A stretch of 64,000 nt of DNA from Myxococcota bacterium (lineage in GTDB: Bacteria; Myxococcota; B64-G9): assembly GCA_022710975.1 (NCBI GenBank), contig JAKLGA010000007.1:1-64000 (forward strand), read 5' to 3'. The position numbers and the translations under genes are program-made. Shown here one piece after another: positions 3,001-64,000 of the stretch; position 1 is the first letter of the stretch; each line of letters opens with the position of its first letter. The notes under the pieces were generated by a model. The model did no database searches and was not told the DNA's origin. It was given only the letters and a program-made list of their open reading frames with translations.

Positions 3001-3191
3001 ACGACGCCTACTGCGATTGCAACGCGACCTGCGCCTGGGACGTGAACGACTGCGCTGGCGGAACGGACTTCTGCCCGGGCTACACCGGCGCCAGCGACTG
3101 CTGCCAGATCACCGATCCGTGCGGCTACGCGAGCGACGGCACCTGCGACTGCGACTCGACCTGCGGCTGGGACGTGGCCGACTGCACCTGA
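1..3191 (+). CDS. Giant cysteine/aspartate-rich repeat surface protein, 5' end missing
   Basis: The reading frame is open at the left edge (codons start at base 3) and ends in TGA at 3189-3191, so the N-terminus lies outside the window. The first in-frame ATG (36) is not a start: it lies inside a 39-residue repeat whose next copy has Leu at that position. In order: two copies of that 39-residue Cys module, a pre-peptidase C-terminal-like beta domain (about 240-600), then a mosaic of three repeat types. These are 11 copies of an Asp/Asn motif of the form E-[IV][20 protein letters not shown] (EF-loop-like spacing, probably calcium binding), 7 copies of a FCPGYTG...CCQN...CDC...CAWD module, and 2 copies of a module built around [12 protein letters not shown] second beta domain sits at about 2040-2370. 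It is surely exported. Function is unknown; adhesive or structural surface roles are inference. No C-terminal sorting tail is visible. Confidence 0.85.
3..236 (+). repeat. 117-bp tandem repeat (2 copies visible)
   Basis: Bases 3-119 and 120-236 encode the same 39-residue Cys module, nearly identical at the DNA level. The array may continue upstream of the window. Confidence 0.85.
1391..1654 (+). repeat. 132-bp tandem repeat (2 copies)
   Basis: Two almost identical 44-codon units, starting at 1391 and 1523, encode the [19 protein letters not shown] module. Related but more diverged copies occur elsewhere in the same gene. Confidence 0.85.
1656..2027 (+). repeat. 93-bp tandem repeat (4 copies)
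   Basis: Units start at 1656, 1749, 1842 and 1935. Each encodes the 31-residue Asp-rich DNDGDGLAD module. The copies are nearly identical in bases, which suggests recent tandem expansion or homogenisation. Confidence 0.9.
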
Positions 3192-48534: not shown

Positions 48535-50796
48535 TCACTTGGTCGGATCGAGCTCCAGGTTCAGGATGATGACATCGCCGGTCTCGAGGGTCACCTTGCG
48601 GCGCTGGGTGACGAAGCCGGGCATGGACACGAGCACGTCGAAGGTGCCGGTCCCCAGCTGCGCCTCGAACTTGCCGGTGCCCTTGTCCGCGCGGAGCTTC
48701 TTGTTGCGCGCCGGGATGGCGATGAGCGCCTGGAGCGGGGTGCCGGCCACCGTGCGCACCGTCCCGCGCAGCGTGCCGAAGGTCTTGCCCGTGGCCACCT
48801 GGAGGCGGATGGTGACCGGCGTCTCCGGGGCGTCGGCCACCAGGACGACCTGGCTGTCCTCCTGGTAGCCGTCGCGCAGCACGCGCAGCTTGACCGGGCC
48901 CGGCGCCATCGGGCAGGTGGCGAAGCCGCCCTGCTCCGAATCGGACAGGAAGGTGATCGGGTCGCGGCTGCCCACCACGATGCGCGCGCCGCCCAGCGGC
49001 TCGCCCGTGGCCGCGTCCAGCACCTGGCCCCGCACCCGGCCCGCGCCGGGCGCCGCGCAGGGTTGCGCCGCGCCCACGTCCTGGGGCACCGGGACCTGCA
49101 CCTCCCGCACGACCACCCTGGTGACCTCGTGCACCTCGACCCGCGTCTGCTCCGCGCCGAAGTCCCAGGCCAGCGACAGGTGCAGCTCGTAGGGCGGGAT
49201 GCGGCCCTTGCCGGCCGGGGCGTCCACACCCAGCAGGCCGATGTCCGCCGAGGCCACCAGGTGCAGGTCGTGGCGCAGGAGCGGCCAGGCGCGCAGGCCC
49301 AGGGTCATCCACATGGGGCTGTCGGTGAAGCCCGGCGCGCCGCCACCCACCGCCGGGGTCATGACCAGCTCCAGGAAGGGCGCCACCGGGCCGAAGGTGT
49401 AGGCCAGGCCCAGGGAGGCGAGCACCTGATCGTGGGGGTTGACGCTCGCGGCGAAGCGCTGCGCCTCGGTCAGCGCGTGCGAGAAGATGAACCGGGTGTT
49501 GTCGAAGAGGTAGCCCACGTTCAGCGCGATCAGCAGCTCCGGCAGCGGCCGCAGATCGAAGGCGGCCAGGATGCGCGTGCTGATGCCCTCGGTGGACAGG
49601 GTGGTGAAGCCCGCGCCCCCGGTCGGGAACTGCACCTGCACGCCCAGGCCCAGCCCGAACATGTCGACCACCTGGTAGCCGTAGCGCACGCCCAGGTGGG
49701 GATCGCCCACCGTCAGGTTCGCGCTCGGGCTGAAGGCGTCGTTCTGGCTGCTGACCGCGCCCAGCCCGCCGAAGAGCTCGAGGCCCTGGACCGGCACGCC
49801 CGACAGGGTCAGACGGCCGACCAGGCGCTGCTGGGTGTCTCCATCGACGAGGAAATCCGGGCTGTAGAAGTAGCCGAGGGATGCCCCGACCAGCACCGAC
49901 CCGGCGGCCGCAGGCACGGCCGTCCAGGTGTGCTGCAGGCCCCAGGGGCCGAGCAGGGACGGTCCGGCCGGGTCCACGCCCGGCTCGGGCGGGGGTTGCA
50001 CGCGGACCTTCACCTCCCCTGGCGGTTGCTCCCCGGGCTCGGGCCTGGCCGCCCCGGGGTCGACCGGGGTCTCAGCGGGCTGTTCGGCTGGCACCTCGGC
50101 TGGCTTCTCGGCTGGCTTCTCGGCTGGCTTCTCGGCTGGCTTCTCGGCTGGCTTCTCGGCTGGCTTCTCGACGGGCTTCTCGGCTGGCTTCTCGACGGGC
50201 TTGTCGACCGGCTTCTCCGCCGGCTTCTCCGCCGGCTTCTCCGCCGGCTTCATCACCGGCTCGGGCAAGGCCGCCACGGCCGGCTTCGGCTCCTCGGGAG
50301 GTGGAGGCGGCTCCGCGGGCTTGGCAGGCTCGACCGGGGCAGGCGCCGGCGGGCGGGCCCGCCAGGCCACCACGGCCTCATCCTTCATGGGTTTGCGCTT
50401 GACCGGCAGCAGGCGCAGGGCCGCCTCGCCGCGGACCTGGATGCCCACCTCGTGGGCGCCCTTGGGCACGTTCACGAAGAAGCCGCGCGAGATGCGGGCG
50501 TCCGTCTTGAGCCGCACCTGCCCGACCTGGCCCTCGTCGAGCTCGAGTTCGAAGACCACCTCCCCGCGCGCCTCCGTGCGCACCAGCACCACCACCCCCT
50601 GCGGCCCTCTGGCCTGGAACCGCAGCCAGCCGTCCTTGGCCAGCACCAGGTAATCGGCGTTCTTGCCCCCGTCCTTGAGCTTCTTGGTGGGGTAGCTCCC
50701 CAGGGGCTTGACCTGGGCGAGCGCCACCCCCGACGGCAGCGCCAGGCAGAGACCGAGCGCAAGGCAAGCGATCCGGGCGGCGGCGCGAGCGCGCAT
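48535..50796 (-). CDS. Large exported beta-barrel protein with Pro/Lys/Glu linker and carboxypeptidase-regulatory-like end
   Basis: About 753 residues. A signal peptide is followed by a globular N-domain (to about 145). Then comes a roughly 100-residue rigid linker made of PAEKPAEKP repeats (TonB-like, probably extending through the periplasm or cell wall), and a barrel-like middle of alternating strands (about 290-540). The C-terminal region includes two beta-sandwich modules (RVRGQVLDAATGEPLGGARI, TLRGTVRTVAGTPLQALI), which are CarboxypepD_reg-like. ATG 50796 has AGAGGAG at ideal spacing. ATG 50811 overlaps the upstream stop (ATGA) and is the alternative. Confidence 0.8.
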   Translation of the reverse strand: MRARAAARIACLALGLCLALPSGVALAQVKPLGSYPTKKLKDGGKNADYLVLAKDGWLRFQARGPQGVVVLVRTEARGEVVFELELDEGQVGQVRLKTDARISRGFFVNVPKGAHEVGIQVRGEAALRLLPVKRKPMKDEAVVAWRARPPAPAPVEPAKPAEPPPPPEEPKPAVAALPEPVMKPAEKPAEKPAEKPVDKPVEKPAEKPVEKPAEKPAEKPAEKPAEKPAEKPAEVPAEQPAETPVDPGAARPEPGEQPPGEVKVRVQPPPEPGVDPAGPSLLGPWGLQHTWTAVPAAAGSVLVGASLGYFYSPDFLVDGDTQQRLVGRLTLSGVPVQGLELFGGLGAVSSQNDAFSPSANLTVGDPHLGVRYGYQVVDMFGLGLGVQVQFPTGGAGFTTLSTEGISTRILAAFDLRPLPELLIALNVGYLFDNTRFIFSHALTEAQRFAASVNPHDQVLASLGLAYTFGPVAPFLELVMTPAVGGGAPGFTDSPMWMTLGLRAWPLLRHDLHLVASADIGLLGVDAPAGKGRIPPYELHLSLAWDFGAEQTRVEVHEVTRVVVREVQVPVPQDVGAAQPCAAPGAGRVRGQVLDAATGEPLGGARIVVGSRDPITFLSDSEQGGFATCPMAPGPVKLRVLRDGYQEDSQVVLVADAPETPVTIRLQVATGKTFGTLRGTVRTVAGTPLQALIAIPARNKKLRADKGTGKFEAQLGTGTFDVLVSMPGFVTQRRKVTLETGDVIILNLELDPTK
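50087..50255 (-). repeat. 12-bp tandem repeats encoding PAEK
   Basis: Short tandem units (TGGCTTCTCGGC on the plus strand) are repeated many times, several exactly, at 50100-50170, with variants at both sides. They encode the PAEK linker. Copy number is likely to vary between strains. Confidence 0.85.
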
Positions 50797-50807
50797 GGTC
50801 GCTCCTC

Positions 50808-51560
50808 TCATGGCACGGTCACCATGACCTCGTTGGACAGCCCAGACTTGTTGGGCGTCGGGGTCGCGTTGTCCAGCACCCTCAGGCGCACGTACACGTC
50901 GCCCGAGGGCAAACCGCGCAACAGGAACCGCTCGGCCGCGCCCGAGCCGCTGGGGGTCGGACCATCCACGACGTTGGCGCCCTCGAACCCGACCTCGTCC
51001 ATCGCGCTGAAGGACCAGCGCACGTCGTAGGTGGAGGCGCGGCCGAGCCAGGCGTCGTTCCCGGTGGCGTGCCAGGTGAGCTCGAGCCCGGAGATCGGCG
51101 TGGCCGTCCAGACGCCGGCGAGGTCGTCCACCGCCGCGGGGGCATAGATGTCCACGCTGTAGGCCGGGGCCAGGCTCACCACGGCCTCGGTCACCTGGCC
51201 GTCGGCCACGGTCAGGCTGGCCGATTCGCCCCGGAAGGCGACCAGCTCACCGTCCAGGCCCTCGGCCAGCACGCTGTAGCCCGAACCCGCCGCCACCTCG
51301 AGCAGGTCGCAGGCGTAGTCCTCGTAGGCGCAGGTCGCCTCGGCCTCGACCCGCCCCGAGCGACGCGCCTGCAGCCGCACGTCGTCCACGACCCCGCTCA
51401 GCACCCCGCGCGTCCCGGGCGTCTCCGGCCCGAGCCAGCGCAGCGTCACGGCGATGTCCCCGGTCCGTTCCTCCGGGCCGCCGCAGCCGAGCAGCGCGAG
51501 CCCGGCCAGCGCCAGACCCGCTGCTCGCACGCCCGCACCCGACCCTCTTCGCCACGCCAT
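50808..51560 (-). CDS. Lipoprotein with Ig-like/fibronectin-type regions
   Basis: 250 residues with lipobox LLGC near residue 26. The mature part has beta-rich segments. The C-terminal half (LELTWHATGNDAWLGRASTYDVRWS ... FLLRGLPSGDVYVRLRVLDN...SGLSNEVMVTVP) reads like one fibronectin type III-like domain. It is the middle gene of the operon: eight bases after the PEGA gene and overlapping the beta-barrel gene by four. Probably a peripheral partner of the barrel protein. Confidence 0.75.
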   Translation of the reverse strand: MAWRRGSGAGVRAAGLALAGLALLGCGGPEERTGDIAVTLRWLGPETPGTRGVLSGVVDDVRLQARRSGRVEAEATCAYEDYACDLLEVAAGSGYSVLAEGLDGELVAFRGESASLTVADGQVTEAVVSLAPAYSVDIYAPAAVDDLAGVWTATPISGLELTWHATGNDAWLGRASTYDVRWSFSAMDEVGFEGANVVDGPTPSGSGAAERFLLRGLPSGDVYVRLRVLDNATPTPNKSGLSNEVMVTVP

Positions 51561-51568
51561 GGCGCGCC

Positions 51569-52552
51569 TCACTCCCAGCCCACGTGGATGCCCCCGCTGC
51601 CGGAGGGGCCCTCGTCCTGCAGGCCGAAGTACACCCCCACGCCCACGCCCCCGGCCACCACCACCCCTACCACGGTCCAGAACCACCAGGTCTCGTAGAA
51701 GGCCGCCTCCTCGGGGGGCGGGGGTGGCGGCGGCGGCTCGGGCCTGGGCTCCGCGTTGGCCAGGGCCTGCTTGGCCAGGGCCGCCTTGCGGGCCGCCTCC
51801 GCCTCGCGAGCCCGCCTGGCCTCCGGGGTCAGCTCGAGCGTGACCTTCACCCGGGAGAGCTGCCCTGGCTGGAGGAGGACCACCTCTCCGTGGGGCAGGT
51901 GATCGACGCGCTGGATCACCAGCTCCACCGCGCCGCTGGGGAACTCCGCGCCCTCGGGGACGTCGCACTTCATGCAGATCGCACCGTTCACCAGGATCTC
52001 GACGTCCGCGGGCTCGACCTCCGCCACCAGCCGTCCCTGCCCCGGCCGGCTGGCGGTCAGGATGGGCCCGGCGGCCAGGCGGGTGGCCTGGACCAGGGCG
52101 CGCTCGAGCTCCCCCGGCCCCTCGCCGGCGAAGCGGGCCGCCTTGCGCACCAGCTCGCCGGTCCGCCCGTCGAAGGCCCGCACCGTCAGCGTCACCCCGC
52201 CCAGGGCCTGGGCCGCGGACAGGTGGAACAGCCAGGTGGCCTTCAGCTTCGAGCCCACCTTGCGGGTGCACGACATCTGCTCCAGGCAGGCGTCCTTGTA
52301 GATCTTGTCCTGGCTGAGCCGATCCACGACCTTCTGCACACCCTCGGCAGGCGCGAGCTGGAACAGCCCCAGATCCTCGAGCGCGAGCCTGAGCCTGCCT
52401 TGCAGCTCCGCCGCCTGCTCTGGCGGCATCTTCTTCGTCGTCACCGGCAGCGCCGCCGCCGGCGCGAGGGGGGGGGGTGCCTGGGCCATGCCCGCGGAGG
52501 TCCAGGCCAGCGCCAGCACCCCGACAGCCCACGCGGCAACCCCGGTCCTCAC
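51569..52552 (-). CDS. PEGA-type exported protein with C-terminal transmembrane helix
   Basis: 327 residues from GTG 52552 (GTG 52555 is also possible; AGGGAGG lies upstream). A signal peptide (about 1-24, GMAQ) is followed by a domain of about 130 residues with C...C (DACLEQMSC). A PEGA-like beta module (GRLVAEVEPADVEILVNGA..., about 170-240) comes next, then a charged helix rich in Ala/Arg/Lys, a poly-Pro run, and a transmembrane helix (WWFWTVVGVVVAGG). It is first in an operon of three envelope proteins. PEGA modules are common in myxobacterial surface proteins. Confidence 0.8.
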   Translation of the reverse strand: MRTGVAAWAVGVLALAWTSAGMAQAPPPLAPAAALPVTTKKMPPEQAAELQGRLRLALEDLGLFQLAPAEGVQKVVDRLSQDKIYKDACLEQMSCTRKVGSKLKATWLFHLSAAQALGGVTLTVRAFDGRTGELVRKAARFAGEGPGELERALVQATRLAAGPILTASRPGQGRLVAEVEPADVEILVNGAICMKCDVPEGAEFPSGAVELVIQRVDHLPHGEVVLLQPGQLSRVKVTLELTPEARRAREAEAARKAALAKQALANAEPRPEPPPPPPPPEEAAFYETWWFWTVVGVVVAGGVGVGVYFGLQDEGPSGSGGIHVGWE

Positions 52553-52585
52553 CACCTCGCCTCCCTTGTTGGACGCTGGTTCAAT

Positions 52586-52614
52586 ATCATGCCAAACCCA
52601 CGAGAAATCGTCAA
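52586..52614 (-). promoter_or_regulatory. Candidate promoter of the PEGA/beta-barrel operon
   Basis: On the minus strand, TTGACG (52614-52609), 17-base spacer, CATGAT (52591-52586), 34 bases before the start. Confidence 0.28.
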
Positions 52615-52644
52615 ATTCTGCGCAGGCAGGACGGCGAGATGGAT

Positions 52645-52674
52645 TTGACCGGGCCGGACGCTGGCACCTAACAT
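52645..52674 (+). promoter_or_regulatory. Candidate promoter of the giant lipoprotein gene
   Basis: TTGACC (52645-52650, 5/6), 18-base spacer, TAACAT (52669-52674, 4/6), in the divergent region, about 85 bases before the ATG. Confidence 0.35.
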
Positions 52675-52758
52675 GAAACAGACGCACCGTGCGAGGCACA
52701 ATTCGCCGCCGGAAAACCCTGGACCGGTGGCGGCACCACTCCAGGGACGAGGTGCACC

Positions 52759-55700
52759 ATGGATACGGGTCGCCTGGTCTCCCGGTTCGCCTGGGCTGCC
52801 ACCCTCGCCGCGGTCCTTTCCTCTGCGGGCTGTGGGCGGGAAGGTTACGACCCGGCCGCCCCGACCCCCTGCGATGGCATACTCTGCTCGGGGCATGGCA
52901 CCTGCGCCGATCTGGACGGGGCACCCTACTGCGTGTGCGACGACGGGTACTACGCCGATGGGCTCGAATGCCTGGAGCTCATCGTGGACAACCCCTGCGC
53001 GGGCATCACCTGCTCGGGGTATGGCGTGTGCGCCGTGCGCGGCGGAGAGGCGGTCTGCGTGTGCGCCCAGGGCTACCACAACCCGGCCGACGATCGAGCC
53101 AATTGCGTGCCCGACACCCATCCGTGCGACGGCGAGGACGGCAGTCCGTGCGACGACACCGAGTTCTGCACTGTTGACGACATCTGCGTGCAGGGCCTGT
53201 GCCGCGGCCAACCCAACGACTGCTCGGACGGCAACTCTTGCACCGTGGACATCTGCAACGAGCTCGAGGATCGCTGCGTGGGTACGGCCGCTCCGGATCT
53301 GACGCCCTGCGACGATGGACGCTACTGCACGCTGGGCGAGGTGTGCCAGGCCGGCCTTTGTGCCCAGGGCTACGAGCGCAACTGCGAGGACGGCAACTCG
53401 TGCACCGACGACCGCTGCGACGTCGACACGGACAGCTGCGTGAACGAGCCGGCGAACGACGGCTCGGCCTGCGACGACGGCGCGTTCTGCTCCGAGGGTG
53501 AGACCTGCCTGGCCGGCGCGTGCGCCGCAGGCCAGCCGCGGAACTGCGACGACGGGAACCTGTGCACCCTGGACATCTGCGACGAGAGCCTCAACGAGTG
53601 CCTGCACGAGAGCGGGCCCAACGAGGGCCAGCCTTGCGACGACGGAAGCTTCTGCACCATGGAGGATCGCTGCGCATCGGGCATCTGCGCAGGCGGCGGC
53701 CAGCGCAACTGCAGCGACGGGAACAGCTGCACCCTGGACTCCTGCGACGAGGTCCAGGACAGCTGCGTCTCCGACGCCTCGGCCTCCGACGGCGTACCGT
53801 GCAACGACAGCGCCTTCTGCACCATCGACGACACCTGCAGCGGCGGCGTCTGCCAGGGCGGCAGCCCGCGCGACTGCGACGACGGCAACCTGTGCACGCT
53901 CGACATGTGCGACGAGGTGCTGGACACCTGCGTGGGCAACGGCATGGCGGTCGACGGCGCGCCCTGCGACGACGGCCTGTACTGCAACACGGGGGAGGTG
54001 TGCACGGCCGGCTTCTGCGCGGGCGGTGCGCCGCGCGGCTGCGAGGACGCCAGCGACTGCACCTTCGACACCTGCGACGAGAACGCAGACACCTGCCTGC
54101 ACGACGAGGGGCTGGCCGAAGGCAGGCCGTGCGACGACGGTGATTTCTGCAGCCTGGGCGAGACCTGCCTGGCGGGCGCGTGCCAGGGCGGTGTACCCAA
54201 CCCCTGCGACGACGGAGATCCTTGCACCGCCGACGCCTGCGACCAGCTCGCGGGCGCTTGCACGCACGACCCGGCCGGGGCCAACGGGACCGCCTGCGAC
54301 GACGGCTCCTACTGCACCGTGGCCGACGCCTGTCAGGACGGCGTGTGCCTGGGCGGCAGCCCGCGGGAGTGCGGCGATCCGAACCCCTGCACCGTGGACG
54401 CCTGCAACGAGATCAGCGACCAGTGCACCCACGCAGCCGTCGTGGATGGCACGGTCTGCGACGACGGCCTGTACTGCAACACGGGCGAGACCTGCACCTC
54501 CGGCTTCTGCACCGGCGGGGGCCAGCGCCCCTGCTCGGACGGGCTCACCTGCACCCTGGACGCCTGCGACGAGCTGGCCGACACCTGCACCCACGACAGC
54601 GCGGCGGCCGACGGCCTGACCTGCAGCGACGGCCAGTTCTGCACGCAGGGCGAGTCCTGCCTCGGCGGCGCCTGCCAAGGCGGTGCACCCAACCCCTGCG
54701 GCGACGGGAACGTCTGCACCGTGGACACTTGCGACGAGGGCACGGACGCATGCCAGCACGACGGCCCGGGGGCCAACGGCCTGGGCTGCGACGACAACGC
54801 ATACTGCACCGTGAGCGACGCCTGCCAGGACGGTGTGTGCGCAGGCGGCGCCCCGCGGGTATGCTCGGACGGGAACTCTTGCACCCAGGACTCCTGCGAC
54901 GAGGTCCAGGACACCTGCACCACCGACGCCGCCCCCATGAACGGCGCGCCCTGCGACGACGGCGCGTTCTGCAGCACGGGCGAGACCTGCAGCGCGGGCG
55001 CCTGCACCGGCGGCACGCCGCGCACCTGCTCGGACGGCAACCCCTGCACCCAGGACGCCTGCGACGAGCTCGCCGATGCCTGCTCCAACAACCCGGCCCC
55101 GGCCAACGGCCTGGCCTGTGACGACGGCCAGTTCTGTACCCTGAACGAGACCTGCCTCGGCGGCGCCTGCCAGGGCGGCGCGCCCAACCTGTGCGCCGAC
55201 GGGAACACGTGCTCCGTGGACACGTGCGACGAGGGCACGAACCAGTGCCTGCACGACGGCCCGGCCGCCAACGGACTGGCCTGCGACGACGCGGCGTACT
55301 GCACCCAGGGCGAGGCTTGCCTGAACGGGGCGTGCGTGGGCGGGACCCCGCGGGTGTGCACGGACGGCAATCCCTGCACCCAGGACTCCTGCGACGAGGC
55401 CCAGGACACCTGCGCGGCCGTGGCCGCGCCCATGAACGGCGCGCCCTGCGAGGACGGCGCCTTCTGCAGCACGGGCGAGACCTGCAGCGCGGGCGCCTGC
55501 GTGGGCGGCACGCTGCGCTCCTGCTCGGACGGCAACGCCTGCACCCTGGACTCCTGCGACGAGACCAACGACGCCTGCCTGAATGACGCGCTGGCGGCCA
55601 ACGGGCTCACCTGCAACGACAGCCAGTTCTGCACCGTGGGCGAGACCTGTCTGGGCGGCGCCTGCCAGGGCGGCTCGCCCAACCTGTGCAGCGACGGGAA

Positions 55701-58700
55701 CACGTGCTCCGTGGACACGTGCGACGAGGGCACGAACCAGTGCCTGCACGACGGCCCGGCCGCCAACGGACTGGCCTGCGACGACGCGGCGTACTGCACC
55801 CAGGGCGAGGCTTGCCTGAACGGGGCGTGCGTGGGCGGGACCCCGCGGGTGTGCACGGACGGCAACCCCTGCACCCAGGACTCCTGCGACGAGGTCCAGG
55901 ACACCTGCGCGGCCGTGGCCGCGCCCATGAACGGCGCGCCCTGCGAGGACGGCGCCTTCTGCAGCACGGGCGAGACCTGCAGCGCGGGCTCCTGCACCGG
56001 CGGCGCGCTGCGCTCCTGCTCGGACGGCAACGCCTGCACCCTGGACTCCTGCGACGAGACCAACAACGCCTGTCTGAACGACTCGCTGGCGGCCAACGGG
56101 CTCACCTGCAACGACGGACTGTTCTGCAGCACGGGCGAGACCTGCCTCGGCGGCGCCTGCCAGGGCGGCGCCCCCAACCTGTGCAGCGACGGGAACACCT
56201 GCACCGTGGACTCGTGCAACGAGGGCACAGACGCGTGCCTGCACGACGGCCCGGCCGCCAACGGCCTGGCCTGTGACGACAACGCCTACTGCTCCCTGGG
56301 CGAGTCTTGCCTGAACGGCGCTTGCCAGGGCGGCGTCGCGCGGGTGTGCTCGGACGGCAACCCCTGCACCCAGGACTCCTGCGACGAGGTCCAGGACACC
56401 TGCACCGCCGTGGCCGCGCCCATGAACGGCGCACCCTGCGACGACGGGATGTACTGCAGCACGGGCGAGACCTGCAGCGCGGGCGCCTGCACCGGCGGCA
56501 GCCCGCGCTCCTGCTCGGACGCCAGCCCCTGCACCCTGGACTCCTGCGACGAGGCCACCGACGCCTGCATCAACGACGCGGTCGGGGCCAACGGCGTGGC
56601 CTGCGACGACGGGCAATTCTGCACCCAGGGCGAGACCTGCAGCGCGGGCGCGTGCACCAACGGCACGCCCAACCCGTGCACGGATGGCAACGTGTGCACC
56701 GCCGACTCCTGCGACGAGGGCGCGAACCAGTGCCTGCACAACGGCCCGGCCGCCGACGGCCTGGGCTGTGACGACAACGCCTACTGCACCGTGAGCGACG
56801 CCTGCCAGAACGGCGTCTGCACAGGCGGCGCCGCCCGGGTGTGCACGGACGGCAACCCCTGCACCCAGGACTCCTGCGACGAGGTCCAGGACACCTGCGT
56901 CGGCAGCGCCGCGCCGATGAACGGCGCGCCCTGCGACGACGGGGCCTACTGCAGCACGGGCGAGACCTGCAGCGCGGGCTCCTGCACCGGCGGCTCGCCG
57001 CGCACCTGCTCGGATGGCAACGGCTGCAGCGTGGACTCCTGCGACGAGGCCTCCGACGCCTGCATCAACAACGCCGCGGCGGCCAATGGCCTGGCCTGCG
57101 ACGACGGGGCCTTCTGCACCCAGGGCGAGACCTGCAGCGCGGGCGCGTGCACCAACGGCACGCCCAACCTGTGCACGGATGGCAACGTGTGCACCGCCGA
57201 CTCCTGCGACGAGGGTACGAACCAGTGCCTGCACAACGGCCCGGCCGCCAACGGCCTGGCCTGCAACGACAACGCCTACTGCACCGTGGGCGAGGCCTGC
57301 TCGAACGGCGCCTGCGCGGGCGGCTCCCCGCGCGACTGCGACGACAGCAACGCCTGCACGCTCGACACCTGCGACGAGGTGCTCGACTCCTGCGTGGGCA
57401 ACGGCGCGCCCATGAACGGCTCGATCTGCAACGACGGCCTGTACTGCAACACGGGTGAGACCTGCGCGGCCGGCATCTGCGCGGGCGGCATCCCCCGCCT
57501 GTGCAACGACGCCAACACCTGCACCGCGGACTCGTGCAGCGAGGCCACCGACGCGTGCGTGTACGACGGGCCAGCCGCCGACGGCCTCGGCTGCAACGAC
57601 GGTCTGTTCTGCACCCTGGGCGAGACCTGCCTGAGCGGCGCCTGCCAGGGCGGCTCGGCCAACCCCTGCAACGACGGCAACGTGTGCACCGCGGACTCCT
57701 GCGACACGCTGCTGGACACCTGCGAGCACGACGGCCCGGCCGCCGACGGGCTCGGCTGCGACGACGGTGCCTACTGCACCATCAACGACGCCTGCACCTC
57801 CGGCACCTGCGTGGGCGGCGTGCCGCTCGACTGCGCGGACGCGAACGCCTGCACGGCGGACTCCTGCAACGAGGTCACCAACCAGTGCGTCCACCCGGTC
57901 GTGGCCGACGGCACCGCCTGCAACGACGGCGCGTACTGCAGCGTGGGCGAGACCTGCACCGCCGGGGCGTGCAGCGGCTCGAGCCCGCGCGCCTGCTCGG
58001 ACGGCAACCCGTGCACCGTGGATTCCTGCAACGAAGCCGGGGACGTGTGCGTGAACGACGCGGCCGCCGCCAACGGCCAGGTCTGCGACGACGGCGCCTT
58101 CTGCGTGACGGGCGAGAGCTGCCTCAACGGCGCCTGCGCCGGCGGCGCTCCGCGCAACTGCTCGGACCTCGTGCTCTGCACCGCGGATGTGTGCAACGAG
58201 GCCACGGACACCTGCGACCACGACGGCTCGGTGATGAACGGCACGGCCTGCGACGACGGCAACTTCTGCCTGGTGAACGAGACCTGCACCAACGGCGCCT
58301 GCGGCAACGGCACCGTGCGGGCCTGCGACGACGGCAACTCGTGCACGGCCAACAACTGCAACGAGGCGCTGGACGCCTGCCAGAACCCGGGCCTGGCCAA
58401 CGGCTCGGCCTGCGAGGACGGCCTGTTCTGCACCCTGGGCGACACCTGCCAGGGCGGGCTGTGCGCGGGCGGGCCGAGCGACCCCTGCCTCGCCGACGTG
58501 TGCGCCAACTTCTGCGACGAGGGCACGGACAGCTGCGGCGGCTGCTCGCCGGCGGGCACCTACTGCGCGAGCTCCACGCAGGCCGCGACCTGCGACGGGG
58601 CCTGCCACATGACCTCGCTGACCATCTGCCCCTACGAGTGCAACGCCACCCGCCAGGAGTGCAACGAGTGCGAGCCGTCCGTGGCCGAGTGCAAGGGCAA

Positions 58701-60405
58701 CGCGGAGCTCCTGTGCAACGCGGACCACGCCTGCAGCGCGGACGGCCTGCTGACCTCGATCACCTGCTGCACCACGAACCGCTGCACCTGCGACAAGGCA
58801 GAGTGCCTCGAGGACCAGTGCCTGACGGCCGCGGACCTGTCGGCCGGCGGCACCGTGGCGGGCACCACCTGCACGGAGTCCGACCACATCCCCGGCGACT
58901 GCAACCCGGGCGGCACGGCCTGCCAGCTCCCGGCCGGGGGCGGGGCGCCCGAGGCTATGTTCCACCTCGACCTCGACGACGGCCTGGGCACCTCGCGTTT
59001 CTACAACATCAGCCTGAACACCTCGGGCTCGGCCCTGGACACGTTCCTGCGGCTGTCGTCGGTGTGCGGCAACGAGAGCCAGCAGCTGGCCTACGCCGGG
59101 GTGTGCAACACCCCGACGCCGGGGGTGAGCCCGGCCACGGCGTGCACCTCCGGGGCCGGGCCGGACAGCGCGCTGCTGTGCGGCATGCCCGAGGGCGAGT
59201 ACTTCGGCGCGGTGGACGGCCCGGCCAGCACCTGTGGCACCTACACGCTGACCGCCGTGGTCACCGCGGTCAGCCTGGACCTCGCCTCCCAGGCGGGCAA
59301 CGTGAGCCGGGGCGGCACCTTCACTGGCACGACCTGCGGCCTGGCCGACAACTACAAGTTCCCGGACACCCAGCTGTGGGACGGCGCGGTGTGCGGCGAC
59401 TGCACCGCCCTGGCGGGCAACGCGCTGTGCCCGCTGTGCGACAGCGCCGCGGCCGCGGACTGCACGGTCAACAGCACCGAGGACAAGTGCGCCTACTCGG
59501 GCCTGGGCAGTCCGGACGCAGTGTTCTACCTGGCCCTGGCGATGGATTCGGGCGTGGACATCACCACCGACGGCTCCAACTTCGACACGGTCATCTACCT
59601 CATGCAGACCGGGCCCACCGGACCCAACCCTCCGGGGATCAACCGGGTGTGCAACGACGACTGCAAGGAGGTCGACGGCGCCTCCCACATCCAGACGTCG
59701 TTGCCGGCCGGGCTGTACTACCTGTACCTAGACGGCGCGAACGGGGCGTGCGGCAACTACGTGATGCGGGTGGTGGTCTCGCCGGCGGCCACTTGCGGCA
59801 ACCTGGTGTGCGAGAGCCCGTACGAGAGCTGCTCGAGCTGCCCGGGCGACTGCACCTGCCCGCACTGCGGCGACGGGACCATCCAGGAGTACGAGGGGGA
59901 GACGTGCGACGACGGGGACACGCAGTCCGGCGACTGCTGCGCCTCGAGCTGCTGGATCGAGGCCGGCTGCGCCTGCTACGGCGAACCGTCCACCTGCGGC
60001 GTCCCCACCCCACGCAGCTACAGCCACACCTGCGCTTGCGCCATCCCGGACTCGGGCAACACCCCTCCGGGCACGGCGCTGAACGACACGGTCAGCGTGC
60101 CGGTGGCTTGCGTCGTGGCCGGGATCACCGTGGACGTGAACATCACCCACACCTACAAGAGCGACCTGGTGGTCACGCTCCGCAGCCCCACGGGCACGGT
60201 GGTCACGCTCCACAACCGCACCGGCGGCGGCGACGACAACATCGTGGGGACCTACGAGACCACCCTGTTCACGGACGGCCCGGGCGAGCTGGAGGACTTC
60301 CTCGGGCTCGCCGGCCAGGGCACCTGGACGCTCACCGCGCAGGACTGGTTCAAGGGGGACGCCGGCACTCTCAACAGCTGGGGCATTCACCTGCAGTGCC
60401 TGTAG
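52759..60405 (+). CDS. Giant lipoprotein: EGF-like head, about 33 CTDC-type Cys repeats, P-domain tail
   Basis: 2548 residues. Lipobox SAGC (Cys near residue 25) is followed by two EGF-like modules (CSGHGTCADLDGAPYCVCDDGYY and CSGYGVCAV...CVCAQGYH). From about residue 125 to 1925 there are about 33 units of 54-55 residues of the form NGxxCDDGxFCxxGETCxxGxCxGGxPRxCSDGNxCTxDSCDExxDxC, which resemble the Dictyostelium CTDC repeat. Next come a different Cys-rich stretch and two pre-peptidase C-terminal-like beta domains (about 2030-2170 and 2175-2345). The protein ends in a proprotein-convertase P-type domain (NTPPGTALNDTVSVP...TWTLTAQDWFKGDAGTLNSWGI). P domains usually accompany proteases, but none is present here. 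It should be a long, disulfide-rich surface fibre. The role is unknown. Confidence 0.88.
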   Translation: MDTGRLVSRFAWAATLAAVLSSAGCGREGYDPAAPTPCDGILCSGHGTCADLDGAPYCVCDDGYYADGLECLELIVDNPCAGITCSGYGVCAVRGGEAVCVCAQGYHNPADDRANCVPDTHPCDGEDGSPCDDTEFCTVDDICVQGLCRGQPNDCSDGNSCTVDICNELEDRCVGTAAPDLTPCDDGRYCTLGEVCQAGLCAQGYERNCEDGNSCTDDRCDVDTDSCVNEPANDGSACDDGAFCSEGETCLAGACAAGQPRNCDDGNLCTLDICDESLNECLHESGPNEGQPCDDGSFCTMEDRCASGICAGGGQRNCSDGNSCTLDSCDEVQDSCVSDASASDGVPCNDSAFCTIDDTCSGGVCQGGSPRDCDDGNLCTLDMCDEVLDTCVGNGMAVDGAPCDDGLYCNTGEVCTAGFCAGGAPRGCEDASDCTFDTCDENADTCLHDEGLAEGRPCDDGDFCSLGETCLAGACQGGVPNPCDDGDPCTADACDQLAGACTHDPAGANGTACDDGSYCTVADACQDGVCLGGSPRECGDPNPCTVDACNEISDQCTHAAVVDGTVCDDGLYCNTGETCTSGFCTGGGQRPCSDGLTCTLDACDELADTCTHDSAAADGLTCSDGQFCTQGESCLGGACQGGAPNPCGDGNVCTVDTCDEGTDACQHDGPGANGLGCDDNAYCTVSDACQDGVCAGGAPRVCSDGNSCTQDSCDEVQDTCTTDAAPMNGAPCDDGAFCSTGETCSAGACTGGTPRTCSDGNPCTQDACDELADACSNNPAPANGLACDDGQFCTLNETCLGGACQGGAPNLCADGNTCSVDTCDEGTNQCLHDGPAANGLACDDAAYCTQGEACLNGACVGGTPRVCTDGNPCTQDSCDEAQDTCAAVAAPMNGAPCEDGAFCSTGETCSAGACVGGTLRSCSDGNACTLDSCDETNDACLNDALAANGLTCNDSQFCTVGETCLGGACQGGSPNLCSDGNTCSVDTCDEGTNQCLHDGPAANGLACDDAAYCTQGEACLNGACVGGTPRVCTDGNPCTQDSCDEVQDTCAAVAAPMNGAPCEDGAFCSTGETCSAGSCTGGALRSCSDGNACTLDSCDETNNACLNDSLAANGLTCNDGLFCSTGETCLGGACQGGAPNLCSDGNTCTVDSCNEGTDACLHDGPAANGLACDDNAYCSLGESCLNGACQGGVARVCSDGNPCTQDSCDEVQDTCTAVAAPMNGAPCDDGMYCSTGETCSAGACTGGSPRSCSDASPCTLDSCDEATDACINDAVGANGVACDDGQFCTQGETCSAGACTNGTPNPCTDGNVCTADSCDEGANQCLHNGPAADGLGCDDNAYCTVSDACQNGVCTGGAARVCTDGNPCTQDSCDEVQDTCVGSAAPMNGAPCDDGAYCSTGETCSAGSCTGGSPRTCSDGNGCSVDSCDEASDACINNAAAANGLACDDGAFCTQGETCSAGACTNGTPNLCTDGNVCTADSCDEGTNQCLHNGPAANGLACNDNAYCTVGEACSNGACAGGSPRDCDDSNACTLDTCDEVLDSCVGNGAPMNGSICNDGLYCNTGETCAAGICAGGIPRLCNDANTCTADSCSEATDACVYDGPAADGLGCNDGLFCTLGETCLSGACQGGSANPCNDGNVCTADSCDTLLDTCEHDGPAADGLGCDDGAYCTINDACTSGTCVGGVPLDCADANACTADSCNEVTNQCVHPVVADGTACNDGAYCSVGETCTAGACSGSSPRACSDGNPCTVDSCNEAGDVCVNDAAAANGQVCDDGAFCVTGESCLNGACAGGAPRNCSDLVLCTADVCNEATDTCDHDGSVMNGTACDDGNFCLVNETCTNGACGNGTVRACDDGNSCTANNCNEALDACQNPGLANGSACEDGLFCTLGDTCQGGLCAGGPSDPCLADVCANFCDEGTDSCGGCSPAGTYCASSTQAATCDGACHMTSLTICPYECNATRQECNECEPSVAECKGNAELLCNADHACSADGLLTSITCCTTNRCTCDKAECLEDQCLTAADLSAGGTVAGTTCTESDHIPGDCNPGGTACQLPAGGGAPEAMFHLDLDDGLGTSRFYNISLNTSGSALDTFLRLSSVCGNESQQLAYAGVCNTPTPGVSPATACTSGAGPDSALLCGMPEGEYFGAVDGPASTCGTYTLTAVVTAVSLDLASQAGNVSRGGTFTGTTCGLADNYKFPDTQLWDGAVCGDCTALAGNALCPLCDSAAAADCTVNSTEDKCAYSGLGSPDAVFYLALAMDSGVDITTDGSNFDTVIYLMQTGPTGPNPPGINRVCNDDCKEVDGASHIQTSLPAGLYYLYLDGANGACGNYVMRVVVSPAATCGNLVCESPYESCSSCPGDCTCPHCGDGTIQEYEGETCDDGDTQSGDCCASSCWIEAGCACYGEPSTCGVPTPRSYSHTCACAIPDSGNTPPGTALNDTVSVPVACVVAGITVDVNITHTYKSDLVVTLRSPTGTVVTLHNRTGGGDDNIVGTYETTLFTDGPGELEDFLGLAGQGTWTLTAQDWFKGDAGTLNSWGIHLQCL
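53140..58495 (+). repeat. Array of about 33 Cys-rich 162-165-bp repeats with trimeric higher-order period
   Basis: Units of 54-55 codons tile this span. From the 5th to the 28th unit the unit types alternate as A-B-C. A ends VAAPMNG, B has CSTGETCSAG or YCNTGE, and C has CLGGACQGGxPN and ends GPAANG. This gives a 495-bp higher-order unit repeated about eight times. Confidence 0.85.
55201..56190 (+). repeat. Two near-identical 495-bp higher-order units in tandem
   Basis: Bases 55201-55695 and 55696-56190 are almost identical. They differ at scattered positions such as the ACG/GCG and valine/alanine codon changes near 55400 and 55890. This is a recent duplication or gene-conversion product within the array. 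Confidence 0.85.
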
Positions 60406-60525: not shown

Positions 60526-63500
60526 ATGACCGGTCTGCGTTCCACGATCGTCTGCCTGGCCCTGGGCCTGGGTGGAGCGGCGATCCTGCAGGCGGGCTGC
60601 GGCCGGGAAGGCTACAACCCGGTCGAGAGCGATGCCTGCCGGGGGGTGACCTGCTCCGACCACGGCTCGTGCGCGGACCTGGCCGGCACGCCCGTCTGCC
60701 TATGCGACGAGGGCTACTACGCCGAGGGGCTCACCTGCCTGGAGTACGTGGTGGAGAACCCCTGCGCGGGCGTCACCTGCTCGGGGTACGGGATCTGCGC
60801 GGTGCGCAACGGCGCGGCCATGTGCGTCTGCGCCCAGGGCTACCACACCCCGCCGGATGACCGGGCCAACTGCGTGCCCGACATCGCCGTGTGCGAAGGG
60901 GAAGACGGCAGCCCGTGCGACGACGGCGAGTTCTGCACGGTGAACGACACCTGCACCGCGGGCCTGTGCGTCGGCCAGGAGCAGGCCTGTGACGACGGCA
61001 ACTCGTGCACCGTCGACCTGTGCAACGAGATCGACGACCTCTGCATCAACACCCCCAAGGCGGACGACACGCCCTGCGACGACGGCGCCTACTGCACGCT
61101 CGGGGAGCGCTGCCTGGCCACGCAGTGCGTGGGCGGCCAGCCCCGCAACTGCTCCGACGGCAACGCCTGCACCGGGGACGTGTGCGACGAGGACGCGGAC
61201 GCCTGCGGCAGCTCGGCCCTGCCCGACGGCACGGCCTGCGAGGACGGGGCCTACTGCACCGAGGGCGACACCTGCCTGGCGGGCAGCTGCGCCGGCGGTG
61301 CGATGCGCGGCTGCGACGACCTGAACCCGTGCTCGAGCGACGTGTGCAACGAGGCCATCGACAGCTGCGAGAACCCGCCGGTGGTGGACGGCACGCCCTG
61401 CGAGGACGGCCAGTTCTGCACCACCGGCGACGTGTGCTCGGGCGGCGGCTGCCAGGGCGGCGGGGCGCGGGACTGCTCCGACGGCGACCAGTGCAGCGCG
61501 GACGCCTGCGACGACGACGCCGACCAGTGCGCGCACGTGCCGGTCCCGGACGGCACGGTCTGCACCGACGGACGCTTCTGCACCCTGGGCGAGAGCTGCA
61601 CGGGCGGCGTGTGCGGTGGCGGCCTGGCGCGCGACTGCCAGGACGGCAACCCGTGCACCGCCGACCAGTGCAACGACGCCACCTCCACCTGCGACCACCC
61701 GCGCGAGCAGGATGGCCTGCCCTGCGACGACGGGCAGTACTGCACCCTGGCGACCCAGTGCCAGGCCGGCGTGTGCAGCGGCGGCTCCTTCGTCGACTGC
61801 AGCGACGCCCTCGACTGCACCCTGGACTCCTGCGACGAGCAGGCGAACGCCTGCGCCAACGACGCCGCCGCCCTGGACGGCGCCGGCTGCGACGATGGCG
61901 AGTTCTGCACCGTCGCCGACACCTGCAACGCCGGCACCTGCGGCGGGAGCCTCAACCCGTGCGACGACAGCAACCCCTGCACGCTGGACGCCTGCGACGC
62001 GCTGGCCGGCGCCTGCACCCACACCCCGGCGGCGGACGGCGAGGCCTGCGACGATGGCCTGTTCTGCACGGTCGGGGACGCGTGCGGCGCGGGCGCCTGC
62101 ACCGGCGCGGCCCGCGACTGCGGGGACGCCAGCGTGTGCACGGCCGACTCCTGCAACGAGGTCAGCGACGCCTGCGTGAACACGGCCGTGGCGAACGGGA
62201 CCGCCTGCGACGACGGCCAGTTCTGCAACGTGGGCGAGGCCTGCGTGGGCGGCGTGTGTGGCGGCGGGCTGGCCCGCAACTGCTCGGACGGCAACCAGTG
62301 CACCGCCGACTCGTGCGACGAGGGCGCGGACGCGTGCGCGAACGCGGACCTGCCCGATCTCAACCCCTGCGACGACGGCATGTACTGCACCCTGGGCGAG
62401 ACCTGCACGGCGGGCGCCTGCGGGGGCGGCGCCGCGCGGAACTGCTCGGACGGCAACGCCTGCACCCAGGACGTGTGCAACGAGATGTCCGACAGCTGCG
62501 ACCACCCGGCGGTGACCGAGGGCACCCCGTGCGACGACGGGGAGTACTGCACCCTGGCCGACGCCTGCGCCGGCGGGACCTGCACCGGCGGCGCGGCCCG
62601 GGATTGCTCGGACGGCAACGCCTGCACCAACGACGTGTGCGACGAGGTCGGGAACGGGTGCGTCTCGACGGCGGTGGCGAACGGCACGAGCTGCAGCGAC
62701 GGCCAGTTCTGCACCCTGGGCGAGACCTGCACGAGCGGCGTGTGCGGCGGCGGCGTGGCGCGCTCGTGCGCGGACGGGAACGCTTGCACCGCGGACTCCT
62801 GCAATGACGTGAGCGACGCCTGCGTCAACACGCCCGTGGCGAACGGCACTGCCTGCGACGACGGCGCCTACTGCACCCAGGGCGAGACCTGCCAGGCCGG
62901 CGCGTGCGGCAACTCCAGCAGCCGCAACTGCTCGGACGGCAACGGCTGCACCCTCGACTTCTGCGACGAGTCGGGCGACGTCTGCGCCCACGAGGGCGCG
63001 GCCATGGACGGCACGCCCTGCAACGACGGCCTGTTCTGCACCAGCGACGACGCCTGCCTGTCGGGCGCGTGCACCGGCGGCGGCGCCAGGAACTGCTCGG
63101 ACGGCGTTGCCTGCACCGTCGACAGCTGCGACGAGGTGGGCAACGCCTGCCTCCACGACGCGGCGGCCGCCAACGGCGCGGCCTGCAACGACGGCCTGTT
63201 CTGCACGCTGAACGACGCCTGCAGCAACGGCGCCTGCGCCGGCGGCGGGGCCCGGGGGTGCAGCGACGGCAACGCCTGCACCGTGGACTCGTGCGACGAC
63301 ACCAACGACGTGTGCGTCAACAACGCGGCCGCGGCCAACGGCCAGGTCTGCGACGACGGGCTCTTCTGCAACACCGGCGAGACCTGCTCGGGCGGGGTGT
63401 GCGCCGGCGGCGCTGCGCGCGTCTGCGCCGACGCCAACCAGTGCACCGCAGACTCGTGCAGCGAGGCCACCGACGCTTGCGTGTACAGCGCTCCGGCGGC

Positions 63501-64000
63501 CAACGGCCTGGCCTGCAACGACACGCTCTTCTGCAACACCGGCGAGACCTGTCTGAACGGCGCCTGCCAGGGCGGCGCGGCCAACACCTGCAGCGACGGC
63601 AACGTGTGCACCGTGGACTCGTGCAACGAGGCCGGCGACACGTGCGTCAACAACGCCGCCGCGGCCAACGGCACCGCCTGCAGCGACGGGCTGTACTGCA
63701 CCACGGGCGAGGTGTGCACGGCCGGCGCCTGCGGCGGCGGCCTGGCGCGGAACTGCGCCGACGCCGACCCCTGCACCAACGACACCTGCAACGAGGGCAC
63801 CGACACCTGCGCCCACGCCGCGGTCGCCAACGGCACCGCCTGCGACGACGGGGCCTGGTGCAACATCGGCGAGACCTGCACCGGTGGGGTGTGCGGCGGC
63901 GGGGTGGCGCGCACCTGCTCGGACGGCAACCAGTGCACCAGCGACAGCTGCAACGACGCCACCGACGCCTGCGTCAACACGTCCGTGGCCAACGGCACGC
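60526..64000 (+). CDS. Second giant EGF/CTDC-repeat lipoprotein, 3' end outside the window
   Basis: The frame opens at ATG 60526 and has no stop before the right edge, so at least 1158 residues. Lipobox QAGC (Cys near residue 25) is followed by CGREGYNP, which matches CGREGYDP of the preceding protein, then the same two EGF-like modules and at least 19 CTDC-type units. The two genes are tandem paralogues with a 120-base gap. The C-terminal domains lie beyond the window. Unit order is less regular than in the first protein, so the trimeric period is not obvious. Confidence 0.88.
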   Translation, partial: MTGLRSTIVCLALGLGGAAILQAGCGREGYNPVESDACRGVTCSDHGSCADLAGTPVCLCDEGYYAEGLTCLEYVVENPCAGVTCSGYGICAVRNGAAMCVCAQGYHTPPDDRANCVPDIAVCEGEDGSPCDDGEFCTVNDTCTAGLCVGQEQACDDGNSCTVDLCNEIDDLCINTPKADDTPCDDGAYCTLGERCLATQCVGGQPRNCSDGNACTGDVCDEDADACGSSALPDGTACEDGAYCTEGDTCLAGSCAGGAMRGCDDLNPCSSDVCNEAIDSCENPPVVDGTPCEDGQFCTTGDVCSGGGCQGGGARDCSDGDQCSADACDDDADQCAHVPVPDGTVCTDGRFCTLGESCTGGVCGGGLARDCQDGNPCTADQCNDATSTCDHPREQDGLPCDDGQYCTLATQCQAGVCSGGSFVDCSDALDCTLDSCDEQANACANDAAALDGAGCDDGEFCTVADTCNAGTCGGSLNPCDDSNPCTLDACDALAGACTHTPAADGEACDDGLFCTVGDACGAGACTGAARDCGDASVCTADSCNEVSDACVNTAVANGTACDDGQFCNVGEACVGGVCGGGLARNCSDGNQCTADSCDEGADACANADLPDLNPCDDGMYCTLGETCTAGACGGGAARNCSDGNACTQDVCNEMSDSCDHPAVTEGTPCDDGEYCTLADACAGGTCTGGAARDCSDGNACTNDVCDEVGNGCVSTAVANGTSCSDGQFCTLGETCTSGVCGGGVARSCADGNACTADSCNDVSDACVNTPVANGTACDDGAYCTQGETCQAGACGNSSSRNCSDGNGCTLDFCDESGDVCAHEGAAMDGTPCNDGLFCTSDDACLSGACTGGGARNCSDGVACTVDSCDEVGNACLHDAAAANGAACNDGLFCTLNDACSNGACAGGGARGCSDGNACTVDSCDDTNDVCVNNAAAANGQVCDDGLFCNTGETCSGGVCAGGAARVCADANQCTADSCSEATDACVYSAPAANGLACNDTLFCNTGETCLNGACQGGAANTCSDGNVCTVDSCNEAGDTCVNNAAAANGTACSDGLYCTTGEVCTAGACGGGLARNCADADPCTNDTCNEGTDTCAHAAVANGTACDDGAWCNIGETCTGGVCGGGVARTCSDGNQCTSDSCNDATDACVNTSVANGT

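What the first reader, a model, noticed from the sequence alone, without database searches (positions are those of the whole stretch)
53140..58495. Trimeric higher-order repeat (495 bp) in a bacterial surface gene
Units 5-28 fall into three types that recur in fixed order A-B-C about eight times. Expansion therefore happens in blocks of three, not single units, like satellite higher-order repeats. The functional period of the protein may be about 165 residues.
Basis: seen in the sequence. Interest (0 to 1): 0.7.

Follow-up and report, generated by a model that had tools for sequence, protein, structure and literature searches.

The report
Three-unit block repeat in bacterial lipoprotein
A bacterial surface-type protein contains a stack of small cysteine-rich modules that grew by copying the same group of three modules again and again; it is a real and unusually clean case of a known way that repeat proteins lengthen, and relatives of the gene do not share the three-module rhythm.

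Summary
Gene 52759-60405 (+) has 32 eight-cysteine units of about 55 aa. Identity peaks at unit lags 3, 6, 9 and 12 (nt, u05-u28: 0.82 at lag 3 against 0.67 at lag 1; 0 of 2000 permutations). Clustering u05-u28 into three groups gives exactly the three phases, 8/8/8. The clean core is u09-u26; both edges are decayed.

"Expansion in blocks of three" is supported for this gene. "Functional period of 165 residues" is not. The adjacent tandem paralogue (21 units) and three of five related arrays in other genomes have no such peak; one has a five-unit block and one a short, weak three-unit pattern. Types A-B-C, in that order, match one triplet that is single-copy in the paralogue and in two relatives, at mutually orthologous addresses: one triplet was amplified in the middle of an older mixed array.

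Of 27 exact matches of 30 bp or more inside the array, 26 lie at lags that are multiples of three, so recombination would mostly be possible only in register. This is multi-domain block duplication, already described for repeat proteins (PMC1553488): a new member of a known kind, of moderate interest.

The parts
52759..60405 (+). Gene 1, 2548 aa: lipobox-like signal, EGF-like region, 32-unit Cys-rich array, C-terminal domains
   Evidence: ORF; lipobox and EGF-like read by eye, pattern recalled
53221..58485 (+). 32 tandem units, 54-55 aa each, 8 Cys per unit (C-x5-C-x4-C-x6-C-x10/11-C-x5-C-x5-C-x4-C)
53964..54455 (+). decayed left edge of the higher-order array (lag 492 bp, 75% over 404 bp)
54456..57875 (+). 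higher-order array proper, 495-bp period, about 6.9 copies, 84% identity on the 495-bp diagonal
54697..55191 (+). A-B-C block, units u10-u12
55192..55686 (+). A-B-C block, units u13-u15 (youngest pair with u16-u18: 99/96/92% nt)
55687..56181 (+). A-B-C block, units u16-u18
56182..56676 (+). A-B-C block, units u19-u21
56677..57171 (+). A-B-C block, units u22-u24
57172..57666 (+). A-B-C block, units u25-u27 (u27 is the closest match of the paralogue's unit 16)
58486..60402 (+). C-terminal region after the array, conserved in paralogue and orthologues; P_proprotein at 60121-60390
60526..64000 (+). Gene 2, tandem paralogue (1933 aa, continues past the window), 21 units, no trimer period

Best explanation
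Gene 1 encodes a long, probably lipid-anchored extracellular protein whose middle is a chain of disulfide-rich modules (a spacer or stalk, inferred). The ancestral array was a mixed series of single-copy units with conserved addresses, still seen in the paralogue and relatives. In the gene 1 lineage one three-unit stretch, matching paralogue units 14-16, was tandemly duplicated about seven times in the middle of the array. Because neighbouring units had already diverged to about 66% identity while blocks three apart stayed near-identical for stretches, homologous recombination (unequal exchange or slippage, and gene conversion) could then pair mainly at multiples of three units. This kept the three-unit rhythm and homogenised the core, while the edges decayed. 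Shown: the period, the decayed edges, its absence in the paralogue and most relatives, the founder address (statistically), and the in-phase distribution of long exact matches. Inferred: the recombination step itself, the stalk role and the surface location.
For: Lag peaks at 3, 6, 9 and 12, 0 of 2000 permutations. Perfect phase clustering, 24 of 24 units u05-u28, and 25 of 25 in-phase nearest neighbours, u05-u29. Diagonals at 495, 990, 1485, 1980 and 2475 bp share the left edge 54456. Decayed edges. The paralogue and g001, g005a, g005b have no lag peak in aa (peak-minus-median reached by 522, 618, 1218 and 632 of 2000 permutations). Paralogue and relatives are collinear unit by unit (z 9.9 for g2-g005b, 7.0 for g2-g001, 9.5 for g005b-g003), whereas gene 1 interior u09-u25 is not (z 1.0, -0.5, -0.3, 0.4). 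With the flank u26-u28 left out, A-B-C in that order fits best at g2.14-16 (33 of 2000 shuffles), g005b.16-18 (6 of 2000) and g003.19-21 (16 of 2000), which are the same mutually aligned positions. Exact matches: of 27 of 30 bp or more, 26 at multiples of three units; of 11 of 40 bp or more, 11. The youngest block pair is mosaic, 4 of 303 against 19 of 192 mismatched sites, Fisher p = 2.3e-5, which fits conversion tracts inside a block.
Against: The founder test failed in 3 of 6 arrays tested (g001 223, g005a 1038, g024 749 of 2000). The C-terminal tree leaves gene 1's place largely open (gene 1 with G001, 91/98, not starred), so orthology and paralogy are unsure. Some out-of-phase similarity exists: a lag-8 diagonal at 56106-56334 and a lag-1 diagonal at 56842-57135, and exact matches of 20-29 bp at other lags. 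Short-read mis-assembly of the array cannot be ruled out without reads.
Confidence: 0.85

Rival explanations
1. The 165-residue trimer is a functional superunit: A, B and C have distinct roles (binding or packing) and selection keeps the order, as is thought likely for nebulin super-repeats.
For: Types stay distinct in aa at lags 6-15 where synonymous codon identity is nearly at its background. Sixteen columns separate the types, e.g. R or N at column 54. Within-type dN/dS is below 1 (0.51, 0.60, 0.70 on hand-picked pairs). A weak trimer pattern also occurs in G024.
Against: Absent from the tandem paralogue and from three of five related arrays; another relative has a five-unit block. G024's types do not match A-B-C (749 of 2000). 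dN/dS is also below 1 between different types (0.86). Slow aa change after synonymous saturation in high-GC DNA needs no type-specific selection.
Confidence: 0.08
2. Selection against neighbour similarity: adjacent modules are kept different to avoid misfolding, aggregation or disulfide swapping, and three types in rotation are the result.
For: Neighbours are 66-67% identical in nt, types three apart 82%. The idea is discussed for IG and FN3 repeats in PMC1553488 section 12.
Against: Another gene of the same genome has an array whose neighbouring units are 87% identical in aa with no higher-order period (L078). The single founder address explains the pattern without it.
Confidence: 0.05
3. Assembly artefact: copies were wrongly multiplied or collapsed in a draft genome.
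For: Draft of 29 contigs; longest internal exact run 174 bp, of the order of a short read.
Against: One open frame of 2548 aa, unit length differences all in frame; most copies of a type are clearly below full identity with private differences; the array lies inside a 346-kb contig.
Confidence: 0.03

Closest known systems
Multi-domain block duplication in domain-repeat proteins (Bjorklund, Ekman and Elofsson 2006, PMC1553488: abstract and sections 8, 9 and 12 read)
   Same: Autocorrelation peak at a multi-domain lag; expansion in the middle of the array; block size varies between proteins of one family
   Different: The single-protein examples in the sections read are vertebrate (human zinc fingers, chicken nebulin); this is a bacterial gene with a Cys-rich unit, and the founder triplet can be traced
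Nebulin seven-domain super-repeat (same paper)
   Same: One block size repeated many times inside one protein
   Different: In nebulin the block size is shared by most family members; here it is not shared by the paralogue or by most relatives
Alpha-satellite-type higher-order repeats (recalled; only search listings seen)
   Same: Diverged monomers in fixed order, similar blocks, homogeneous core with decayed edges
   Different: Protein-coding, about seven blocks only, under reading-frame constraint, in a bacterium
Pfam PF00526 Dicty_CTDC repeat
   Same: Half-units (C-x-DGN-x-CT-x-D-x-C) match the 24-residue profile; gene 2 above the curated cutoff (42.5 against 27 bits), gene 1 below it (23.7)
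   Different: Here two different half-modules form an eight-Cys unit of 55 aa, and units form trimers; bacterial

Membership tests
Higher-order repeat (satellite sense) | Identity highest at one multi-unit lag and its multiples | tested here: met
Higher-order repeat (satellite sense) | Homogeneous core, decayed edges | tested here: met
   both halves in phase 18 of 18 for u09-u26, 2 of 4 for u05-u08, 0 of 4 for u27-u30
Higher-order repeat (satellite sense) | Array length varies between individuals by whole blocks | not testable with these tools
   no second genome of the same genus was among the relatives
Multi-domain block duplication (PMC1553488) | Autocorrelation peak above shuffled order | tested here: met
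   gene 1 peak at lag 3, 0 of 2000
Multi-domain block duplication (PMC1553488) | Block size not fixed within the family | tested here: met
   lag 5 in G003 (0 of 2000 aa), lag 3 in G024 (49 of 2000 aa), none in four others
PF00526 Dicty_CTDC | Score above Pfam's curated cutoff | tested here: inconclusive
   gene 1 23.7 bits with cutoff 27, E 4.2e-5, 23 stretches; gene 2 42.5 bits
P_proprotein (PF01483) | Score above curated cutoff | tested here: met
   65 bits, cutoff 21; 7 of 7 C-terminal relatives match at E <= 0.1
Bacterial lipoprotein | Signal peptide with lipobox before a Cys | tested here: inconclusive
   Read by eye: a Cys after a hydrophobic stretch in gene 1, gene 2, g005a, g005b, g003; pattern recalled, no predictor run; gene 2 has Q at -3

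The most novel reading that the evidence does not exclude
The array is a self-locking recombination record: once three neighbouring units had diverged past the homology needed for recombination, only shifts by three could occur, so unit divergence alone sets the block size in bacterial repeat genes. Block size (3, 5 or single units) would then be predictable from the spacing of long exact matches.
Probability: 0.35. Interest if true: 0.5.

Novelty: new member of a known kind. Interest (0 to 1): 0.36.

Why it matters
It is a clean bacterial case in which the founder triplet, its single-copy counterparts and the amplified copies can all be seen, next to an unamplified tandem paralogue as a natural control. 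It makes the question left open in PMC1553488 (is block expansion random or directed, and what sets the block size) testable in one gene family: long exact matches inside this array sit almost only at three-unit spacing. It also warns against reading a repeat period as a functional period without looking at relatives.

Tried and rejected
Functional 165-aa period: looked for in the paralogue and five arrays of other genomes, not found as a shared feature. Same A-B-C types in G024's trimer: not found (749 of 2000). Fold of the trimer: AlphaFold model with mean pLDDT 80.6 but pTM 0.38. Foldseek gave nothing at E <= 0.001; the best rows were Entamoeba Gal/GalNAc lectin (4.0e-3) and ADAM ectodomains. 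VIA-align gave Z 3.1 at most. No relative of the trimer profile was found in PDB sequences at E <= 1. No fold or function is claimed. NCBIfam: no hit for gene 1. First genome-contig scan with the single C-terminal sequence: no relative confirmed; the second, with the alignment, gave 4 loci. A mid-unit breakpoint at 54456: partly an effect of the 3-bp shorter unit u08 and ungapped diagonals, so not claimed. Paper searches for bacterial protein higher-order repeats, listings only (PF00526): no paper describing this case appeared in them; most subscription journals are not in the library. One search was a first script with a wrong cysteine pattern that found nothing; one search is its corrected form.

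Dropped before counts: 9 of 20 fetched regions gave no run of 10 or more half-modules and are not in the 16 runs. The founder test left out u26-u28 on purpose, and its type lists also left out u01-u08 and u29-u32. The dN/dS pairs were picked by hand. In some searches the G001 array is cut at its N-terminal side by a contig end, G003 is cut after the array, and the second G005 C252 gene has no array in its contig. L046 and L047 (G010, G028), fetched, gave no array of 4 or more units and were not used further.
Full report
WHAT IS THERE. The window lies in a 7.13-Mb, 29-contig, 98.6% complete genome; window GC is 70-79% in 2-kb steps. Gene 1 (52759-60405, +) encodes 2548 aa. It has a hydrophobic N-terminus ending in a lipobox-like Cys, an EGF-like region (both read by eye), 32 Cys-rich units (53221-58485) and a conserved C-terminal region with a proprotein-convertase P-domain (65 bits, cutoff 21). 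Each unit has 8 Cys. The half-units weakly match PF00526 Dicty_CTDC (23.7 bits, below cutoff), and those of gene 2 match it above cutoff (42.5 bits). Gene 2 (60526 to beyond the window, 1933 aa, 21 units) is a tandem paralogue; their C-terminal regions are 57% identical.

THE OBSERVATION. Lag profile of u05-u28 in nt: 0.669, 0.668, 0.820, 0.660, 0.668, 0.778 for lags 1-6, with further peaks at 9 (0.768) and 12 (0.760); 0 of 2000 permutations reach the contrast. Hierarchical clustering returns exactly the three phases, 24 of 24 units, in nt and in aa; nearest neighbours are in phase 25 of 25 (u05-u29). Ungapped diagonals at 495, 990, 1485, 1980 and 2475 bp all begin at 54456. Splitting each unit in two, both halves are in phase for 18 of 18 units u09-u26, while u07, u08, u27, u28, u29 and u30 are mixed. 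The array thus has a homogeneous core and decayed edges. The edge units pair with each other over 21 units (u05 with u26, 80% nt; u08 with u29, 76%), as expected if the amplification pushed them apart. The youngest blocks are u13-u15 and u16-u18 (99/96/92% nt). Their differences are unevenly spread, 4 of 303 sites then 19 of 192 (Fisher p = 2.3e-5, cut chosen after looking), which suggests conversion tracts shorter than a block.

RELATIVES. With the C-terminal region as query, full or near-full relatives occur in 5 of 195 phylum genomes at E <= 1e-40 (own, G001, G003 and G005 of the same family, and G024 of another). The arrays have 19 (G001), 12 and 22 (G005), 26 (G003) and 8 (G024) units. 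Lag-peak test in aa: gene 2, g001, g005a and g005b none (522, 618, 1218 and 632 of 2000 permutations reach the value; gene 2 in nt shows a weak lag 7, 50 of 2000); G003 lag 5 (0 of 2000); G024 lag 3 (49 of 2000). So the trimer is not a family property.

ORIGIN. Arrays of gene 2, G005 (C340), G003 and G001 are collinear unit by unit (z 9.9 g2-g005b, 9.5 g005b-g003, 7.0 g2-g001, 3.9 g2-g003; 300 order shuffles each). Each unit has an old address. Gene 1 as a whole keeps some of this (z 3.5 with gene 2 and with g005a; 2.0 with g005b, 1.4 with g003, 0.7 with g001) but its interior u09-u25 does not (z 1.0, -0.5, -0.3, 0.4 with gene 2, g005b, g003, g001). When the mean A, B and C types (flank u26-u28 excluded) are slid along other arrays in the order A-B-C, the best places are gene 2 units 14-16 (33 of 2000), G005 C340 units 16-18 (6 of 2000) and G003 units 19-21 (16 of 2000). 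These are the same mutually aligned addresses in the chains, and A-B-C is the best of the six orders in all three. Three other arrays gave nothing (223, 1038 and 749 of 2000). I take the triplet at this address as the founder. The three tests share ancestry and are not independent, and no correction for six arrays was made.

MECHANISM. Inside the array, exact matches of 30 bp or more number 27, of which 26 are at multiples of three units; for 40 bp or more, 11 of 11; for 16 bp or more only 106 of 185. Since homologous recombination needs long uninterrupted identity (established knowledge), pairing is mostly possible in register by three. This explains both continued growth in threes and homogenisation of the core. 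The recombination step is inferred, not shown; the long in-phase matches are also what the duplications themselves leave behind. Gene 2 has no run of 30 bp or more and no detected higher-order period, although this is also what mere absence of recent duplication would give.

OTHER ARRAYS IN THE GENOME. In 20 fetched regions, 11 gave 16 runs of 10 or more half-modules. Two runs of a 3368-aa ORF on contig C29 are homogeneous single-unit arrays (even lags 0.83-0.88 and 0.71-0.78); a third run of the same ORF has a period of five half-modules (0.71 against at most 0.51 at other lags). No run had a significant period of six half-modules (three units). Block size therefore varies within one genome.

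FUNCTION. The likely role is a long, disulfide-rich spacer carrying C-terminal beta-domains away from a lipid anchor (inferred from anatomy). The trimer model has mean pLDDT 80.6 but pTM 0.38, and fold searches gave only weak Cys-rich matches, so no fold is claimed. Within-type dN/dS on chosen pairs is 0.51 (A), 0.60 (B) and 0.70 (C), and 0.86 between neighbours: loose constraint, no sign that the types have separate duties.

COMPARISON. Bjorklund et al. 2006 (PMC1553488; abstract and sections 8, 9 and 12 read) used a like autocorrelation test and report that domain repeats are often expanded by several domains at a time, often in the middle, with block sizes that differ within most families. 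Gene 1 fits that description in each respect tested.

Noticed in passing
window 1-3191 (+): Cys-rich gene built from alternating 31-aa DNDGDG-type (MopE-like by eye) modules and 44-aa CCQN-type modules, with local tandem blocks (132 bp x 3, 93 bp x 4). Another mixed-module array with local block copies.
   Followed up: partly
window 50084-50251, inside ORF 48535-50811 (-): 12-bp repeat, 14 copies, coding a PAEK-type linker in a protein with CarboxypepD_reg and PEGA matches.
   Followed up: partly
window 52549-59688 (-): An antisense frame opposite gene 1 is open for 2379 codons; probably a by-product of high GC and the repeat, since each unit repeats the same stop-free pattern.
   Followed up: no
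window 10367-13321 and 12952-14955 (-): Two ORFs with 8 Cu-binding_MopE (PF11617) stretches each, one with a VWA domain.
   Followed up: no
L078 (G000:C29:229000-246000): A 3368-aa ORF with two homogeneous single-unit Cys-rich arrays and a third array with a period of five half-modules.
   Followed up: partly
L045 (G003:C130), units 12-15 and 17-20: A five-unit block duplication in a relative's array: the same process with another block size.
   Followed up: yes
L009:7394-9289 (downstream of gene 2): A protein-kinase-domain ORF (Pkinase, E 3e-33) follows the two repeat genes on the same strand; no functional link tested.
   Followed up: no
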